A DNA stretch of 64,000 bases from Bacteroides ndongoniae. GTDB lineage: Bacteria > Bacteroidota > Bacteroidia > Bacteroidales > Bacteroidaceae. The position numbers and the translations under genes were made by a program. The notes under the pieces are model-generated. The model searched no databases and was not told where the DNA came from. It saw nothing but the letters and a program-made list of their open reading frames with translations. Positions 8,159 through 64,000 of this stretch are shown here, one piece after another (positions within the stretch are counted from its first letter, which is position 1; every line of letters starts with the position of its first letter). The DNA lies in the NCBI RefSeq assembly GCF_900108345.1, contig NZ_FNVV01000013.1, positions 186,001 to 250,000 on the forward strand, in the 5' to 3' direction.

Positions 8159-9658
8159 ATGGATGATTTGTTTTCCTGGCTCCATATCGACGTGACGCGT
8201 TTGCGCGATGTCTTTGTGTACGATCCGCATTCGCCGATGATCTTCAGCAGTGGCATTTTTCTCTGGCTGTTTGCGGCCTTTATCGTCGTCTATCTGCTGT
8301 TGCAGCGTCGTACGACGGCCCGGCTGATGTTTGTCACGTTGTTCTCGTATTATTTCTATTATAAAAGCAGCGGTACCTATTTCTTTTTGCTGGCCGTCGT
8401 CACCGTAAGCGACTTCCTGCTTGCCCTGCTGATGGACCGTACGGTGACCCGCTGGAAACGCAAGCTGTGGGTGGTCGTCAGTCTGTGTGTCAACCTGGGC
8501 TTGCTGTGCTACTTCAAATACACCAATTTCCTGCTCGAATGCTGGGCATCGCTGACGGGCGGCACCTTCTCCATGCTGGACATCTTCCTGCCTGTGGGCA
8601 TTTCGTTTTTCACCTTCCAGTCGCTGAGCTACACCATCGATGTGTATCGGCGCGAGATAAAGCCGCTCACCAATTTGCTCGATTACGCATTCTATGTATC
8701 CTTCTTCCCGCAATTAGTGGCGGGTCCCATTGTGCGCGCCCGCGACTTTATCCCGCAGATCCGCCGCCCGTTGTTTGTTTCCAACGAGATGCTGGGGCGC
8801 GGCATCTTTCTGATAGTGAGCGGCTTGTTTAAGAAGGCGGTGATATCCGATTATATCAGCGTCAACTTTGTAGAGCGCATTTTCGATAACCCTACGCTCT
8901 ATTCGGGGGTAGAGAACCTGATGGGGGTATATGGCTATGCGTTGCAAATCTATTGCGACTTTTCGGGCTATAGCGATATGGCGATAGGAATAGCCTTGTT
9001 GCTTGGTTTCCATTTCAATATCAACTTTGACTCGCCCTATAAATCGGCCTCGGTCACCGAGTTCTGGCGCCGTTGGCACATCTCGCTGTCCAGTTGGCTG
9101 CGCGACTATCTGTACATCTCGCTTGGAGGCAACCGGAAGGGGAAAGTGCGGCAGTACGTCAACCTGATTATTACCATGTTTCTGGGTGGGCTGTGGCATG
9201 GTGCTTCCTGGAACTTTGTGCTGTGGGGTGTGCTTCACGGTGTGGCCTTGGCAGTGCATAAGTTCTGGATGTCGCTGACGGGGCGCAAGAAGGGCGAGCA
9301 GAGTCATGGCATCCGGCGTTTCTTCGGGGTGGTCGTAACTTTCCACTTCGTATGTTTCTGCTGGATCTTCTTCCGCAATGCCGACTTCGCTACGTCGGTC
9401 GATATGCTTCGACAGATTTTTACCGTGTTCCGTCCGCAACTGTTGCCGCAATTGCTGGCCGGTTATTGGGAAGTGTTTGCCCTGATGGGGCTGGGATATG
9501 TACTTCACTTCCTGCCCGACAGTTGGGAACGTGCCTGTACAAAAACAGTAATCCGCCTCCCCCTGCTGGGAAAGGCGGTACTGATGATTGCACTGATTTA
9601 TCTGGTTATTCAGATGAAGAGTTCGGACATCCAGCCCTTCATTTATTTCCAGTTCTGA
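8159..9658 (+). CDS. MBOAT family O-acyltransferase (AlgI/DltB-like)
   Basis: A 499-residue multi-pass inner-membrane protein. GGLWHGASWNFVLWG contains the conserved MBOAT histidine (H347), and EFWRRWHISLSSWLRDYLYI and FFPQLVAGPI are typical of the AlgI branch. AlgI-like proteins move acetyl groups from cytoplasmic donors across the membrane to SGNH partners, and two such partners are encoded immediately upstream. The likely outcome is O-acetylation of a capsule, exopolysaccharide or peptidoglycan. The gene ends only 10 bp from the end of the convergent GH20 gene, leaving no room for a separate terminator. Confidence 0.92.
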   Translation: MDDLFSWLHIDVTRLRDVFVYDPHSPMIFSSGIFLWLFAAFIVVYLLLQRRTTARLMFVTLFSYYFYYKSSGTYFFLLAVVTVSDFLLALLMDRTVTRWKRKLWVVVSLCVNLGLLCYFKYTNFLLECWASLTGGTFSMLDIFLPVGISFFTFQSLSYTIDVYRREIKPLTNLLDYAFYVSFFPQLVAGPIVRARDFIPQIRRPLFVSNEMLGRGIFLIVSGLFKKAVISDYISVNFVERIFDNPTLYSGVENLMGVYGYALQIYCDFSGYSDMAIGIALLLGFHFNINFDSPYKSASVTEFWRRWHISLSSWLRDYLYISLGGNRKGKVRQYVNLIITMFLGGLWHGASWNFVLWGVLHGVALAVHKFWMSLTGRKKGEQSHGIRRFFGVVVTFHFVCFCWIFFRNADFATSVDMLRQIFTVFRPQLLPQLLAGYWEVFALMGLGYVLHFLPDSWERACTKTVIRLPLLGKAVLMIALIYLVIQMKSSDIQPFIYFQF

Positions 9659-9668
9659 TCTGTCGCTA

Positions 9669-12014
9669 TCAGTCTATTTCTATCTCGTCGAGGAAGAGGA
9701 AGGCGGGATTGCCTGCTCCGTTGTGTCCCTTGGGCAATACGGCAGGTCTCAGGGTGAGTTGTACATAGCGCGTCCGTACGGGGGCGAAGTCGATGCTGTA
9801 GTCTTCGATGCCTCTTGTATCGGGCGCAGTCTTCACGGGGAATGTTTTGGTGGCTATTTCGCGGTACGACTGTCCGTCGTCGGAGATGGCTACGTGCATC
9901 TCGCTGCATCCCATGATCCAGTCGCCCAAAGATACGAAGGCATGAGTTCCGGCACGTCTGATTTCGTCTCCGCTTGTTCCTAAGTCGATCACAGCCGTGA
10001 TGTCTCCGCCGATGAAACCGAGCCATTCGCCCGAGGCAAAGTTGTCACTGCCCCGTTGTCCGTCAACCAGCATGGAGGCTCCCGCATACGTATATTTCGG
10101 AGATGGCTGTATGCCGGTCAGCTGAATAGGGCAGAGTGTGGCCTTGTTGAAGAAGAAATCGCGCTGCAGCACTTTGCTATCGTTTCCGTCCGCACGGATG
10201 GCGATGGCTTTCAGTTGGGTTGTCTGATCGATGCTGATGCCTGCCGTGTCGTATGGCTGAGAGGTTTCGTTGGGTTGGCTGCCGTCGAGGGTATAGTAAA
10301 TAGGGGCATTGTCAACGGTGTTCAAGGTGATCAGGGCTGATTTCTTCGATGTTTTTCCGGTTGGGGCAGGTGAGATTTCGGCCCGGATGTCGAAGATGTG
10401 TTTGGCATAGTTCAGTCCGTCTCTTTGATAAAGTTGGATAAGAGAGAGTAGGCGTTTTACAAAGTCATTGTAATCTTTCTTCTCAGGTTGTGTCCACTGT
10501 ACTTCGGCAAGGGCGGCCATGCGCGGAAGCACCATGTACTCTACCTGTTCGGGTGACAGTATGTATTCGGTCCACAAGTTGGCCTGTGCTCCCAGAATGT
10601 GTTTCTTCTGTTGGTCGTTGAGGCCCTCAGTGGGCTCAAGGCTATATACTTTTTCTACCGGAACATATCCTCCGATGGCATCGTAAGGCTCGTTGGCCTT
10701 GTCGGCGCTTTGGAAGTAATCGAAGTAGCAATAGGTGTTCGGTGTCATGATGACGTCGTGTCCCATCTGGGCCGCTTTGATGCCTCCTGCACTGCCTCTC
10801 CACGACATGACGGTGGCGTTGGGGGCTATGTCGCCTTCCAGAATTTCGTCCCATCCGATGATTTGTCTTCCTTTCTCATTCAGGAACTTCTCGATGTGTG
10901 CCATGCAATAGCTTTGTAAACGATCTTCTGCACTGTGCTCTTTGTCGGCTTTCAGTCCTTTGGCACGGATTAAGGCCTGACACTTGAGGCACTTTTCCCA
11001 GCGGGTGCGTGGAGCTTCGTCGCCTCCGATGTGGATGTATTTCGATGGGAAAATATCGATAATCTCTGTCATTACATCTTCCAGAAATGGTAAAGTCTTT
11101 TCGTTGCCGATGCAAAGCACGTCTTCGAATACGCCCCAAAGGGGAGACACTTCATACGGGCCTCCGGTGCAACCTAATTCGGGGTAGGCTGCCAGAGCTG
11201 CCAGCATGTGTCCGGGAAGGTCTATTTCGGGGATAACGGTGATGTAGCGTTCTTGTGCATAGCGTACGATTTCGCGTGCTTCATCCTGGGTGTAGAAACC
11301 ACCGTAGGTCGTGTTGTCGTATTGGTCGGTATTGTGTCCGATGACGGTACGGTTTCGTGTAGAGCCAATTTCGGTCAGTTTCGGATATTTCTTGATTTCG
11401 ATTCGCCAGCCCTGGTCTTCGGTGAGGTGCCAGTGCAGAGTATTCATGTTATGCAGAGCCAGCAGGTCAATATACTCTTTGATAAATTCAACGGGGAAGA
11501 AGTGTCTTCCTACATCCAGCATCATACCACGATAAGCAAAACGGGGGGCATCGTTAATTTCGCCTGCGGGCAATAGGAGGGTAGCTCCTTGAGCTACGGC
11601 TGGGATAGATTTGCGTAATGTCTGTATGCCGTAGAATACACCGTTTTCGGTCTGTCCTTCAATGCGGATGCCTTCTGCCGAAGTACTTAACTTGTATCCT
11701 TCGGGATTGGTTATTTCGCTGTTGAGGCCTAAAGTGATACATCCTGTTGCACTTTCTCCTTCCTTTATGGCTTTAGTCTGGAGGGTATAACCGGTCGATT
11801 GAGCAATGTATTCAGCCAAAAATTCTGCATTGCGTTTCAGTAACGGGTTATTCTCCGGATAGGCTATTATTGTGCTTCGTGTCAGCTTGAACGGAGAGTC
11901 TTGTGTAAGGTTAACCTCTTGCGGGAGGGGAACCACGGAGTAGGAGGCTTGTTGCTCATTCGAAGAACAAGCGGCAAAAGCAAGTGCTACAATTGGTAAA
12001 AGATACTTTTTCAT
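9669..12014 (-). CDS. Beta-N-acetylhexosaminidase lipoprotein (GH20)
   Basis: A 781-residue glycoside hydrolase that removes terminal N-acetylglucosamine or N-acetylgalactosamine from glycans by substrate-assisted catalysis. It starts with a lipoprotein signal, LAFAACSS (Cys16). A GH20b-like N-terminal domain is followed by the TIM barrel; the catalytic pair is D332-E333 in HIGGDEAPRTRWE. After residue 540 comes a chitobiase-type segment (APIYYTLDGSQP), then a C-terminal discoidin-like region. Bacteroides carry many such enzymes for host mucin or N-glycan foraging. No SusC/D genes are adjacent. Confidence 0.93.
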   Translation of the reverse strand: MKKYLLPIVALAFAACSSNEQQASYSVVPLPQEVNLTQDSPFKLTRSTIIAYPENNPLLKRNAEFLAEYIAQSTGYTLQTKAIKEGESATGCITLGLNSEITNPEGYKLSTSAEGIRIEGQTENGVFYGIQTLRKSIPAVAQGATLLLPAGEINDAPRFAYRGMMLDVGRHFFPVEFIKEYIDLLALHNMNTLHWHLTEDQGWRIEIKKYPKLTEIGSTRNRTVIGHNTDQYDNTTYGGFYTQDEAREIVRYAQERYITVIPEIDLPGHMLAALAAYPELGCTGGPYEVSPLWGVFEDVLCIGNEKTLPFLEDVMTEIIDIFPSKYIHIGGDEAPRTRWEKCLKCQALIRAKGLKADKEHSAEDRLQSYCMAHIEKFLNEKGRQIIGWDEILEGDIAPNATVMSWRGSAGGIKAAQMGHDVIMTPNTYCYFDYFQSADKANEPYDAIGGYVPVEKVYSLEPTEGLNDQQKKHILGAQANLWTEYILSPEQVEYMVLPRMAALAEVQWTQPEKKDYNDFVKRLLSLIQLYQRDGLNYAKHIFDIRAEISPAPTGKTSKKSALITLNTVDNAPIYYTLDGSQPNETSQPYDTAGISIDQTTQLKAIAIRADGNDSKVLQRDFFFNKATLCPIQLTGIQPSPKYTYAGASMLVDGQRGSDNFASGEWLGFIGGDITAVIDLGTSGDEIRRAGTHAFVSLGDWIMGCSEMHVAISDDGQSYREIATKTFPVKTAPDTRGIEDYSIDFAPVRTRYVQLTLRPAVLPKGHNGAGNPAFLFLDEIEID

Positions 12015-13765: not shown

Positions 13766-15296
<1,531 letters not shown>

Positions 15297-59882: not shown

Positions 59883-60022
59883 TGTTTTCGGCTTATTTTT
59901 GTTTGAAGTGTCTTTTCTCTAAGTTTGGAGAGGACGGTATTCTTTTCCTGTAGTTTTTCCGGTGGCGTGTCCCGGTTTTTTAAAATAAGTTTTTGCCTTG
60001 TTTATTTTTCCTTTTGCAATAC

Positions 60023-60051
60023 TTGTTGTTCGTCAAGAAAAAGTATCTTTG
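60023..60051 (+). promoter_or_regulatory. Promoter of the 5'-nucleotidase genes
   Basis: TTG (60023-60025), an 18-bp spacer, then TATCTTTG (60044-60051). It lies 57 bp before the ATG at 60108. Confidence 0.7.
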
Positions 60052-60107
60052 TGGCAATAAAGAAAAAAATAAGTATGTGTCCGTTTAGCGGATTTTCAGT
60101 AAAACAA

Positions 60108-60881
60108 ATGCAGATGAAAAAGAATTATTTGAATCTTCTTTCAGGGACGGTGCTGGGTACTGTCTTCTTTTTAATGTCGTGTCACTCTGCTTACGAGGTA
60201 ATAAAGGTTGAGGGGGAAAGGGTGGCAATTGATTCTTCGTGGGATGCTCGTTCCGATGCGGATGCGCAGGCGTTGCTTGCTCCTTATAAGGCTACGGTGG
60301 ATAGTATTATGTATCGGGTCGTAGGTACGGCAGATGTGTCGATGGACCGTAAACGTCCGGAAGATCTTTTGTCGAATCTAGTAGCCGATGTGTTACGCGA
60401 ATCGGCGGTACCGGTTTTGGGTAAACCGGCAGATATGGGTCTTGTCAATATAGGTGGTTTACGCAGTGTGCTGACAGAAGGACCTATTAGTTGTGCTGAG
60501 ATTTATGAGATACTGCCTTTCGAAAACGCGCTTTGTGTACTTACGATAAAGGGGACCTATTTAAAGCAACTGTTTGAAAATATTGCAGCCCGTGGTGGAG
60601 AAGGTGTTAGTGGTATAAATCTGGAAATCACGTCTGATGGAAAGTTGTTGAAGGGCACGATAAGTGGCTGTTCAGTAGAGGATGAGAAACTGTATACGAT
60701 CGCAACAATTGATTATCTGGCAGAGGGAAATGATGGTATGACAGCATTGATACAGGCTGAAAAACGGGAATGTCCCGATGGGGCACGTTTGCGTGACCTT
60801 TTTATGCAGTATGTAGAGAAACAGACGGCTGCCGGGAAAGTGATTACGTCACGTATGGAAGGTCGGATTGTCGTAAAATGA
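60108..60881 (+). CDS. 5'-nucleotidase C-terminal domain lipoprotein
   Basis: About 257 residues. The signal ends in a lipobox (VFFLMSCHS), so it is lipid-anchored. The rest is the substrate-binding C-terminal domain of UshA-like 5'-nucleotidases: NLVADVLRESA, MGLVNIGGLRSVLTEGPIS, EIYEILPFENALCVLTIKG and YLAEGNDGMTAL. The catalytic metallophosphatase half is encoded by the next gene. An ATG at 60075 would give a longer, poorer signal; 60108 or 60114 fits better. The gene order is domain C then domain N, the reverse of the single-chain enzyme. Confidence 0.88.
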   Translation: MQMKKNYLNLLSGTVLGTVFFLMSCHSAYEVIKVEGERVAIDSSWDARSDADAQALLAPYKATVDSIMYRVVGTADVSMDRKRPEDLLSNLVADVLRESAVPVLGKPADMGLVNIGGLRSVLTEGPISCAEIYEILPFENALCVLTIKGTYLKQLFENIAARGGEGVSGINLEITSDGKLLKGTISGCSVEDEKLYTIATIDYLAEGNDGMTALIQAEKRECPDGARLRDLFMQYVEKQTAAGKVITSRMEGRIVVK

Positions 60882-60924
60882 TGTCTGAGTATGATTTTTC
60901 AGTTGTTCAATCTTTAAAGTTTTG

Positions 60925-61785
60925 ATGAGTCGTATGAAACGTTTTTATATTGTCGGCCTGCTGTTGGTTTGTATGGCCGTTGTTGTCTCGGCACAACAGA
61001 AAGAGTTGTTTATTCTTCAGACTAGCGATACGCATAGTCGTATTGAACCTATTCCCCCGCATACAGCCGATCCGGCTGCCGGTATGGGTGGAGTAGTGCG
61101 TCGGGCTACATTTGTGAAAGAATTCCGTAATGAGCATCCTGATGTATTGCTTTTCGATTGCGGTGATATCTCGCAAGGTACACCTTATTATAATTTGTTT
61201 AAAGGGGAAGTTGAGATAAAGTCTATGAATCTGATGAAGTATGACGCTATGACCATCGGTAATCATGAGTTTGATTTTGGCATGGATAATATGGCGCGCT
61301 TGTTTCGTATGGCCAATTTCCCGGTTGTTTGTGCTAATTATGACATGACAGGTACTGTTCTTGAAGGTATTGTGAAACCTTACGTTGTTCTCGAACGTAG
61401 TGGATTGAAAATAGGAGTATTCGGCATCAGTCCGAAACTGGAGGGTTTGGTTCAAGCTGACAAGTGCGAAGGTGTGGTCTATAAAGATCCTGTGGCTACA
61501 GCTCAGGAGATGGCTGATCTGTTGAAGAACAAAGAGCATTGCGACGTGGTTATCTGTCTTTCGCATTTGGGTATTCAGCCGGGAGCTGCTGACTCGGAAG
61601 AATATGACAACAACCTTGTAGCCAAGACACGTAATATTGATGTGATTTTGGGTGGCCATACCCATACCAATATGGAACATCCTGCGATCTATCAGAATGC
61701 TGACGGAAAAGATGTTCCTATTATGCATGTTGGCAAGAGCGGTGTTTATGTTGGTAAGATGAAGTTGACACTACAAGCGGAATAA
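60925..61785 (+). CDS. 5'-nucleotidase metallophosphatase domain protein
   Basis: 286 residues with a signal peptide (FYIVGLLLVCMAVVVSAQQ). The calcineurin-like metal-binding motifs are complete: QTSDTHSR (Asp35, His37), DCGDISQG, GNHEFDFG and GGHTHTN. This is the catalytic half of a UshA-like enzyme, which removes phosphate from nucleotides in the periplasm. It lacks the substrate-binding C-terminal domain, which is encoded just upstream as a separate lipoprotein with a 43-bp gap. The two products probably work together. Confidence 0.9.
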   Translation: MSRMKRFYIVGLLLVCMAVVVSAQQKELFILQTSDTHSRIEPIPPHTADPAAGMGGVVRRATFVKEFRNEHPDVLLFDCGDISQGTPYYNLFKGEVEIKSMNLMKYDAMTIGNHEFDFGMDNMARLFRMANFPVVCANYDMTGTVLEGIVKPYVVLERSGLKIGVFGISPKLEGLVQADKCEGVVYKDPVATAQEMADLLKNKEHCDVVICLSHLGIQPGAADSEEYDNNLVAKTRNIDVILGGHTHTNMEHPAIYQNADGKDVPIMHVGKSGVYVGKMKLTLQAE

Positions 61786-61815: not shown

Positions 61816-64000
61816 ATGATGAAAAAGAAGATTCAGATATATTTGTTAGAGGCTGTTCTATTGTTATCGGGAATTTTTGTACAGCCTGTGTCAGCACGAA
61901 GTGTGGAATATACACAGGTCGCAACAAAAGATGAGGCTTGCAGACAGTGGGTCGATTCAGTTTTTTCCCGGTTAACACGGAACGAGAAGATCGGACAATT
62001 ACTGGTGGCTACGTTGCCGGCTGAGGCAAGCCGCCAGAATAAAAAGATGGTCCGTACGTTGGTTAGAAAATACAAAATCGGTGGATTGGTATTCGATGGA
62101 GGTACTCCGGAAGAACAGGCTATTCTGACCAATCTGGCACAGGGCGGATCTGAACTCCCCTTGTTGATTACGACACGGGGAAGACGCCTGTCGGATCGTC
62201 TTTCGGGAGTCCCTGTGTTCCCTAATGAGGCAGCTTTGCAATGCATGACAGATACAATACTGATGCAGAAGTATCGTACTGAAGCCTTACGTGAGTTTCA
62301 TGAACTGGGGATGTTTGGTGATATCTTGCCAGCAGAACTGGAAGGCGAACGTTTTCTGGAAGGTATGGTTGTGTCTTACGGAAATGCTTTGCGCGAACAT
62401 GATGAATTGGTGAAAGCATTGCAGTCGGGCGAACTGCCAGAAGATGAGTTGGAGGAACGCTGCCGAAAAGTGTTGGCACGTAAATATATGTTGGGTTTAC
62501 GTGGAAGACAGCCGAATTTGCAGGTCAGTGGTATCAGCTATCGTATTAATACAGAATCGGCACAGGCATTGGCTGCCGATTTGCGTCGGGCTGCGGTGAC
62601 GGTGGTCAGCAACTATTTTGGAGTTTTACCTTTGGCCCCGGTTGAAGGAGATATTGCGGTGCTTAGTATTGGCGAAGCAGGAAAAGACTCGGCTTTTGTG
62701 GAAAGATTGAAGGAGAGTGCTGGAATTGTCCGTTATCAGTTGGCTGCCGATGCTGATGCGGCGGCGTGTGAATCGGTAAGGTTAGAGTTGCAGCCGTTTC
62801 GTCGTATGATTGTCAGTATCACAGGACAGGGTTTACAGATATTGGGCCCTGAAGTGCAGAACTTTCTGGAAAGCCTGGAAGTACAAGCTCCGTTGGTCTA
62901 TGCGTTCTTTGCTCCTTTTCAGTCAACATATGCGTTGGAGCAGGCTTTGGCAAGGTCCAGTGCGTTAGTGTTGGCTCATTCTCAAGAATCTGATTTGCAG
63001 CAGTATGTAGCCGATGTTTTGTTTGCGAAGGATTCGGCAACGGGGCGTCTGTTTGTCAATATAGGCCGGTCTTTTCCGGTGGGAGCAGGATGCAGTATTG
63101 CAACGGGAATGAAACCGGTACGGATGTTACCCGAAGATATCGGAATGAAGTCGTACGTTTTGCAGCAGATAGATAAAGTGGCCATAGACGGGCTGAAAAA
63201 AGGTGTATATCCAGGGTGCCGGATTCTGGTCTGGAAAAATGGCCAGACTATTTATGACAGAGGTTTCGGAACGCATTCTTTGCAGGACACGACTTCGGTT
63301 CGGCAGACTGATATGTTCGATTTGGGTGCATTGACTATGCCTATGTCTACTGTGTTGGCGGTGATGAAGTTGTATGAGGAAGGACGATTGAAACTGGATG
63401 CTAAAGTATCTTCTTATCTTCCTTTTTTGCGCGGCAGTAATAAACGCAACATTACGATTCGTGACTTGTTGTTTCACGAAGCTGGATTGGCACCTCATTT
63501 ACGTTTCTACATTGAAACGATCGATCCGCGTTCTGTACACGGACCATATGCCCAAAGTTGGGCAGACCAGTGGCATCGGACACGGGTCAGCGAGCACAGC
63601 TATTTTTGTACAGATTTTAAGTTTAAGAAGGGGTTGATATCGTCTTCGCGGACGTCTTCACATACATTGCAGGTGGCTGATGGACTGTGGCTGAACAAAA
63701 GTTTTAAGAATACTATGTTGCAAATGATTGCCAAAAGTGATCTGATAGGCAGGCGTTCGGTGTACAGTAGTCTGGCTGGAATCCTGTTGCAACAGGTGGT
63801 GGAATCAATAACACAATTGCCGCTGAATCTGTATGTGGCAAAAGAGTTTTATGCTCCGATGGGGTTGCAGCGTACAATGTATTTGCCATTGTCGCGTTAT
63901 GATAAGTCGGAAGTAATGCCGACTGCCTTCAATGATTTCTTATGCCGGCAGGATTTGTGCGGATACGTTTATGATAAGACAGCAGCCTGTATGGGTGGTG
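61816..64000 (+). CDS. Degenerate GH3 / beta-lactamase-like fusion (partial)
   Basis: The frame is open from 61816 to the window end, at least 728 residues. A signal peptide is followed by WVDSVFSRLTRNEKIGQLLV, the start of a GH3 NagZ-like domain. The KHFPGHGD catalytic segment and the nucleophile region are missing; sequence jumps from FGDILPAEL to the C-terminal helix RCRKVLARKYMLGL. From about residue 455 a class C beta-lactamase-like domain follows (IDKVAIDGLKKGVYPGCRIL), but the SxxK motif reads A505-L-T-M508, and the Tyr motif is Y650-S-S. Both domains look catalytically dead. It may have kept a binding role. Confidence 0.8.
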   Translation, partial: MMKKKIQIYLLEAVLLLSGIFVQPVSARSVEYTQVATKDEACRQWVDSVFSRLTRNEKIGQLLVATLPAEASRQNKKMVRTLVRKYKIGGLVFDGGTPEEQAILTNLAQGGSELPLLITTRGRRLSDRLSGVPVFPNEAALQCMTDTILMQKYRTEALREFHELGMFGDILPAELEGERFLEGMVVSYGNALREHDELVKALQSGELPEDELEERCRKVLARKYMLGLRGRQPNLQVSGISYRINTESAQALAADLRRAAVTVVSNYFGVLPLAPVEGDIAVLSIGEAGKDSAFVERLKESAGIVRYQLAADADAAACESVRLELQPFRRMIVSITGQGLQILGPEVQNFLESLEVQAPLVYAFFAPFQSTYALEQALARSSALVLAHSQESDLQQYVADVLFAKDSATGRLFVNIGRSFPVGAGCSIATGMKPVRMLPEDIGMKSYVLQQIDKVAIDGLKKGVYPGCRILVWKNGQTIYDRGFGTHSLQDTTSVRQTDMFDLGALTMPMSTVLAVMKLYEEGRLKLDAKVSSYLPFLRGSNKRNITIRDLLFHEAGLAPHLRFYIETIDPRSVHGPYAQSWADQWHRTRVSEHSYFCTDFKFKKGLISSSRTSSHTLQVADGLWLNKSFKNTMLQMIAKSDLIGRRSVYSSLAGILLQQVVESITQLPLNLYVAKEFYAPMGLQRTMYLPLSRYDKSEVMPTAFNDFLCRQDLCGYVYDKTAACMGG

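What the first reader, a model, noticed from the sequence alone, without database searches (positions are those of the whole stretch)
61816..64000. Double pseudoenzyme: GH3 and beta-lactamase domains both lack catalytic residues
The protein resembles the GH3/serine-hydrolase fusions common in Bacteroides, but the GH3 part lacks the KHFPGHGD block and nucleophile region, and the serine-hydrolase part has Ala505 and Met508 in place of Ser and Lys and Y-S-S in place of Y-x-N. The frame is otherwise intact for over 700 codons, so it is kept by selection. A sensor or inhibitor of cell-wall fragments is one idea. It follows the split nucleotidase closely.
Basis: partly seen in the sequence, partly recalled or inferred. 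Interest (0 to 1): 0.62.

Follow-up and report, generated by a model that had tools for sequence, protein, structure and literature searches.

The report
Dead twin of a cell-wall enzyme
This Bacteroides gene is a catalytically dead twin of a two-part, probably cell-wall-trimming enzyme whose intact copy is the very next gene; across the genus this twin has lost one or both active sites about ten times over while evolution kept the rest of the protein, so it very likely does a non-enzymatic job.

Summary
The frame runs past the window to a natural stop (860 aa). Ser and Lys of the SxxK site are Ala505/Met508, and the GH3 barrel lacks about 150 residues including the acid/base loop and nucleophile. 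Two corrections: Y-S-S is not a lesion (intact relatives have YSC or YSD), and the third BLA motif (HTG) is intact. The next gene, about 20 bp on, is a fully intact GH3-beta-lactamase fusion. The window gene is the upstream copy (U) of an ancient tandem pair confined to the genus Bacteroides. U is one clade. The adjacent downstream copy (D) is intact in 51 of 52 sampled pairs. U copies lost GH3 in about 8-10 lineages and the SxxK site in about 9, in every combination. Dead U copies stay in frame and their BLA fold is about as constrained as in live copies (omega about 0.06). A U-specific 40-residue patch between motifs 1 and 2 persists in dead and live copies. AlphaFold predicts a folded BLA domain and an ordered mini-barrel. 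Most likely U is a retained non-catalytic partner of D, or a ligand-binding protein; the mechanism is untested.

The parts
61816..64000 (+). Upstream copy (U) of the tandem GH3-BLA pair, double pseudoenzyme; the gene ends 398 bp beyond the window (860 aa; L004:2317-4899)
61816..61896 (+). Probable Sec signal peptide, residues 1-27 (MMKKKIQIYLLEAVLLLSGIFVQPVSA)
   Evidence: Read from the sequence; no signal-peptide program was run
61936..62376 (+). GH3 N-domain remnant, residues 41-187: start and end of the barrel kept, about 150 residues with the acid/base loop and nucleophile deleted near residues 168-180; predicted as an ordered mini-barrel
   Evidence: pLDDT mostly above 90 for residues 41-165
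62428..63120 (+). GH3 second domain (alpha/beta), residues 205-435, retained
   Evidence: alignment; model; omega 0.15 in the clade of the window gene, 0.17 in D of the same genomes
63151..64000 (+). Beta-lactamase/PBP4B-type serine hydrolase domain, residues 446-860 (last 132 residues lie outside the window)
   Evidence: PF00144 140 bits; closest orthologue model gives Z 37 over 336 residues to 6kjh
63328..63330 (+). Nucleophile Ser replaced by Ala505
63337..63339 (+). Catalytic Lys replaced by Met508
63502..63624 (+). U-specific conserved patch, residues 563-603 (RFYxxxIDPxSVhGPYxQSWxDxWHxT..SEHsYxxxDFkF), kept in dead and live U copies and different in D
63763..63771 (+). Y650-S-S: second-motif Tyr retained
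60922..61785 (+). Metallophosphoesterase half of the conserved split 5'-nucleotidase, next gene upstream
   Evidence: PF00149; synteny

Best explanation
U is a secreted or periplasmic pseudoenzyme made by tandem duplication of a GH3 (NagZ-like) plus serine-hydrolase (PBP4B/EstB-like) fusion enzyme early in the genus Bacteroides. Its catalysis became dispensable because the intact twin D supplies it. U has lost one or both active sites repeatedly while its fold, and a U-specific patch that should lie near the rim of the BLA pocket, are kept by selection. Mechanism, inferred: U acts non-catalytically as a partner subunit of D, forming a heteromer that stabilises, positions or gates D during cell-wall fragment trimming, like the catalytically dead prozyme of trypanosome AdoMetDC. 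Shown here: pseudoenzyme status, paralogy, adjacency, repeated loss, purifying selection. Not shown: binding to D, ligand, phenotype, and that D acts on peptidoglycan.
For: Intact D is the next gene, starting about 20 bp after the stop of U. Tandem order nt5C-metallophos-(U)-D is kept in the loci examined. U is one clade, SH-aLRT 100, found in 1 of 30 genera of the family. D keeps both catalytic sites in 51 of 52 pairs; in the 52nd (G125) D is truncated. Losses in U: GH3 in 8 (fewest changes) to 10 (losses only) lineages, SxxK in 9. Codon-model omega in the BLA domain: 0.066 in the clade of the window gene, 0.069 and 0.062 in two clades whose members all share a lost Ser or Lys, against 0.046-0.052 in live U and 0.023-0.078 in D. 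A random-mutation simulation gives about 5 stop codons at only 0.05 changes per site and no run without stops. Among residues conserved in live U and in D but lost in dead U are S505, K508, Y650, H807, T808. U-specific residues R563, V574, P577, Q580 and T589 are in all 17 BLA-dead copies. Ordered models, mean pLDDT 87 and 84. Where D is missing (G019) or truncated (G125), U keeps both active sites.
Against: No physical or genetic evidence that U and D interact. Many Bacteroides species have D alone, so U is not required for D in general. Dead copies show somewhat higher amino-acid divergence than D of the same genomes in several pairs, and the GH3 remnant is about 3 times more relaxed (omega 0.138 against 0.044). 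The window gene has no close relative (63% identity at best), so its own omega rests on long, partly saturated branches, and its Ser/Lys losses may be more recent than its divergence from G113 and G130.
Confidence: 0.45

Rival explanations
1. Ligand-binding protein: dead U binds muropeptides or D-amino-acid peptides in the largely intact BLA pocket without cutting them, as a sensor, buffer or delivery protein.
For: Lineages with a clean Ser-to-Ala change and Lys kept (G028, G072, G111, G060, G133; G028 and G111 also keep Tyr and HTG) leave a nearly complete pocket. The U-specific patch lies between motif 1 and motif 2, which in class C folds lines the pocket entrance (position inferred from fold topology).
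Against: Pocket residues Tyr650, His807 and Thr808 also drift in several dead copies; no signalling domain or adjacent regulator was found; no ligand was tested.
Confidence: 0.27
2. Slow decay: U is a redundant duplicate on its way out, and the dead copies are transient relics.
For: U is absent from many Bacteroides species, decays in many lineages, and dead copies are slightly faster.
Against: Purifying selection in clades that share an ancestral lesion (omega 0.06-0.07); all dead copies are open frames with a full BLA domain; no U remnant was seen between metallophos and D in U-less loci.
Confidence: 0.13
3. U is still an enzyme with a rebuilt active site or a different chemistry.
For: Tyr650 and HTG are retained in the window copy; Lys-to-Gln recurs in several lineages.
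Against: Both nucleophiles (Ser; GH3 Asp) are gone, and dead copies carry different residues at the Ser position (A, D, E, G, T), not a new constant one.
Confidence: 0.05

Closest known systems
RmNag3 of Rhodothermus marinus (PMC6987092): GH3 beta-N-acetylglucosaminidase with an additional C-terminal beta-lactamase domain
   Same: Same three-part architecture (GH3 domain 1, domain 2, beta-lactamase domain), signal peptide
   Different: RmNag3 is an active GlcNAcase with no adjacent glycoside hydrolase gene; the window copy has lost the GH3 catalytic part and the SxxK residues and sits beside an intact paralogue
Intact downstream paralogue D (L004:4923-7964, 1013 aa)
   Same: 44% identity, same architecture, same gene cluster and strand
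   Different: D keeps KHFPGHGDTDTDSH, TDAL, SLTK, YSC, HTG; U lacks the first three
PBP4B/YfeW, EstB, EstG and class C beta-lactamases (PF00144)
   Same: Complete fold of the C-terminal domain
   Different: SxxK is A-L-T-M; U-specific patch between motifs 1 and 2
Prozyme of Trypanosoma brucei AdoMetDC (PMC5201418)
   Same: Catalytically dead paralogue kept beside its live twin; regulates it by heterodimerisation
   Different: Unrelated fold; for U the interaction with D is only a hypothesis

Membership tests
Glycoside hydrolase family 3 (NagZ type), as active member | PF00933 barrel above gathering score | tested here: not met
   15.8 bits against 27 for the window part; not listed for the full protein
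Glycoside hydrolase family 3 (NagZ type), as active member | KHFPGHGDTxxDSH acid/base loop and TDAL nucleophile | tested here: not met
   Deleted in the alignment with D
Serine beta-lactamase/PBP4B-like hydrolase (PF00144), as active member | Fold and profile above cut-off | tested here: met
   140.4 bits against 27; closest orthologue model Z 37, rmsd 2.3, 336 aligned
Serine beta-lactamase/PBP4B-like hydrolase (PF00144), as active member | SxxK nucleophile and Lys | tested here: not met
   A505, M508
Serine beta-lactamase/PBP4B-like hydrolase (PF00144), as active member | Tyr of motif 2 and [KH]TG of motif 3 | tested here: met
   Y650-S-S and H807-T-G
Bacteroides U clade (upstream copy of the tandem GH3-BLA pair) | Falls inside the U clade, adjacent 5' to D, carries the U-specific patch | tested here: met
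Prozyme-type activating pseudoenzyme | Forms a heteromer with its live paralogue and changes its activity | not testable with these tools
   No complex prediction or assay available
Peptidoglycan-fragment enzyme (D and live U) | Cleaves GlcNAc-MurNAc or D-Ala peptides | not testable with these tools
   Inferred from NagZ and PBP4B model matches of D, below their cut-offs, and from RmNag3 (PMC6987092)

The most novel reading that the evidence does not exclude
A whole genus has repeatedly and independently turned the upstream twin of a bifunctional cell-wall enzyme into a dedicated non-catalytic subunit, by knocking out either or both active sites, so the locus is a natural series for how a bacterial regulatory pseudoenzyme evolves.
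Probability: 0.35. Interest if true: 0.7.

Novelty: new variant of a known kind. Interest (0 to 1): 0.5.

Why it matters
Dead paralogues that regulate live enzymes are best described in eukaryotes. Here, in common gut bacteria, one tandem gene shows about nine or ten independent losses of each of two active sites with the folds kept, and the live twin is next door whenever U is dead in the pairs examined. That makes it directly testable whether the fold was retained for partner binding or ligand binding, and it warns against annotating these genes as beta-lactamases or glucosidases.

Tried and rejected
Pseudogene or sequencing artefact: rejected, since the frame is open to a natural stop and the same state occurs in other isolates and MAGs. 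Missing motifs hiding later in the frame: rejected. Y-S-S as a lesion: rejected. First genome-contig scan with the window gene alone found nothing; the alignment query worked. Biopython YN00 failed on saturated pairs and NG86 dS was undefined for several, so codon-model omega was used; one codon run failed on a thread setting. A correlation between GH3 loss and SxxK loss across U was tested and is not significant. Literature searches found no paper on this dead copy. Fold searches of the orthologue were dominated by the BLA domain, so GH3-like matches of the remnant were not assessed by structure. Promoter and terminator scan gave nothing above chance for promoters.

Full report
Observation. 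The frame starting at 61816 is open to the window end. The window lies at G000:C2:186001-250000 of a 4.95 Mb genome. In the genome the gene runs on for 398 bp to a natural stop, 860 aa in all. Ala505 and Met508 replace the Ser and Lys of SxxK. The GH3 acid/base loop and nucleophile are missing because about 150 barrel residues are deleted. Tyr650 and the HTG motif are kept, and Y-S-S is not a lesion because intact relatives have YSC or YSD.

What it is. The next gene (L004:4923-7964, about 20 bp after the stop) is an intact fusion of 1013 aa with PF00933 at 249.5 bits and PF00144 at 156.7 bits. Its nearest named models, all below cut-off, include PBP4B and NagZ-type hexosaminidase. The one characterised protein of this architecture found in the library is RmNag3, an active beta-N-acetylglucosaminidase (PMC6987092). 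The window gene and this neighbour are 44% identical, so the window gene is the upstream copy (U) of a tandem pair and the neighbour is D.

Spread. A search of 159 genomes of the same genus and a named scan of bacterial genomes show that the genus is Bacteroides in the broad sense (record titles include Bacteroides and Mediterranea). D is found in most species, U in about a third. In a search of 399 genomes of the family, U-grade matches occurred in only 1 of 30 genera. At this locus the order is rplS (opposite strand), 5'-nucleotidase C-domain gene, metallophosphoesterase, optional U, D. A tree built without the active-site columns puts all 52 paired U copies on one branch (SH-aLRT 100), with single-copy genes scattered among D, as expected for one old duplication and later losses of U (quick tree, LG+G4).

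Repeated loss. Of 52 paired U copies, 27 keep both sites, 8 lost GH3 only, 7 lost SxxK only, 9 lost both (GH3 deleted), and one full-length copy has point lesions in both. On the tree GH3 was lost in 8 lineages by fewest changes or 10 if only losses are allowed, and SxxK in 9. In dead copies the Ser position became A, D, E, G or T (one keeps Ser), and the Lys position, where changed, Q, R or M. D keeps both sites in 51 of 52; in G125 D is truncated after the GH3 barrel. G019, a MAG of 74% completeness, has a U-clade copy and no D found. In both of these U is fully live. Two cases are too few for a test.

Selection. Codon-model omega for the BLA domain is 0.066 in the clade of the window gene (G000, G113, G130), 0.069 in the three copies sharing Gly for Ser, 0.062 in the four sharing Gln for Lys, against 0.046-0.052 in live U sets (0.029 in the GH3-less, BLA-live set) and 0.023-0.078 in D of the same genomes. 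The second GH3 domain is as constrained as in D (0.147 against 0.168), and the N-terminal remnant is relaxed but not free (0.138 against 0.044). Neutral mutation would give stops quickly: about 5 at 0.05 changes per site, none of 200 runs free of stops. For the window gene itself the branches are long and third positions near saturation, so the two clades with shared lesions are the cleaner evidence.

Signature of function. Of residues conserved in live U and in D, those that vary in BLA-dead U include the catalytic Ser505, Lys508, Tyr650, His807 and Thr808, with some others. Because dead copies were defined by loss of Ser or Lys, the first two are true by construction; Tyr, His and Thr are not. 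In contrast R563, V574, P577, Q580 and T589 are in all 17 BLA-dead copies and nearly all live ones, and differ in D. They lie between motifs 1 and 2, which in class C folds lines the pocket entrance; that placement is inferred.

Structure. The closest orthologue (G113, also lacking the GH3 catalytic part and the Lys) is predicted at mean pLDDT 86.9, with a complete class C/EstB-type domain (Z 37.1, rmsd 2.3, 336 aligned to 6kjh). The window's own 728 residues are predicted at mean pLDDT 83.9, with the GH3 remnant mostly above 90. So the shortened barrel is predicted to be an ordered mini-domain.

How it most likely works. Shown: U is a double pseudoenzyme, a tandem paralogue of an intact enzyme, kept by selection. 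Inferred: it works without catalysis, most likely as a partner of D by analogy with dead paralogues such as prozyme (PMC5201418), or as a binder of cell-wall fragments. These two are not separated by sequence data. Decay on the way to loss is the third option and is disfavoured by the constraint in clades that share old lesions.

Novelty. No paper on this gene was found. Pseudoenzyme paralogues are a known kind; a bacterial, bifunctional, repeatedly inactivated tandem twin is a new variant of it.

Noticed in passing
window 59925-61785: The 5'-nucleotidase is split into a C-domain gene and a metallophosphoesterase gene. The pair is present next to D in nearly all relatives examined, so the split is old and ordinary.
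   Followed up: yes
L148 (G019), 8545-11913: A MAG has a U-clade copy with both active sites intact and no D beside it; an ATPase-like gene on the other strand follows.
   Followed up: partly
L130 (G125), 10227-11450: D is truncated after its GH3 barrel while U is fully intact; real rearrangement or assembly fault.
   Followed up: partly
U copies of G025, G113, G147 and the clade G045/G105/G095/G096: Catalytic Lys became Gln in about four separate lineages, which is more uniform than the changes at Ser.
   Followed up: no
window 13767-15295: A 16S rRNA gene lies in the window; another copy in the same orientation lies about 65 kb downstream at G000:C2:265423.
   Followed up: no
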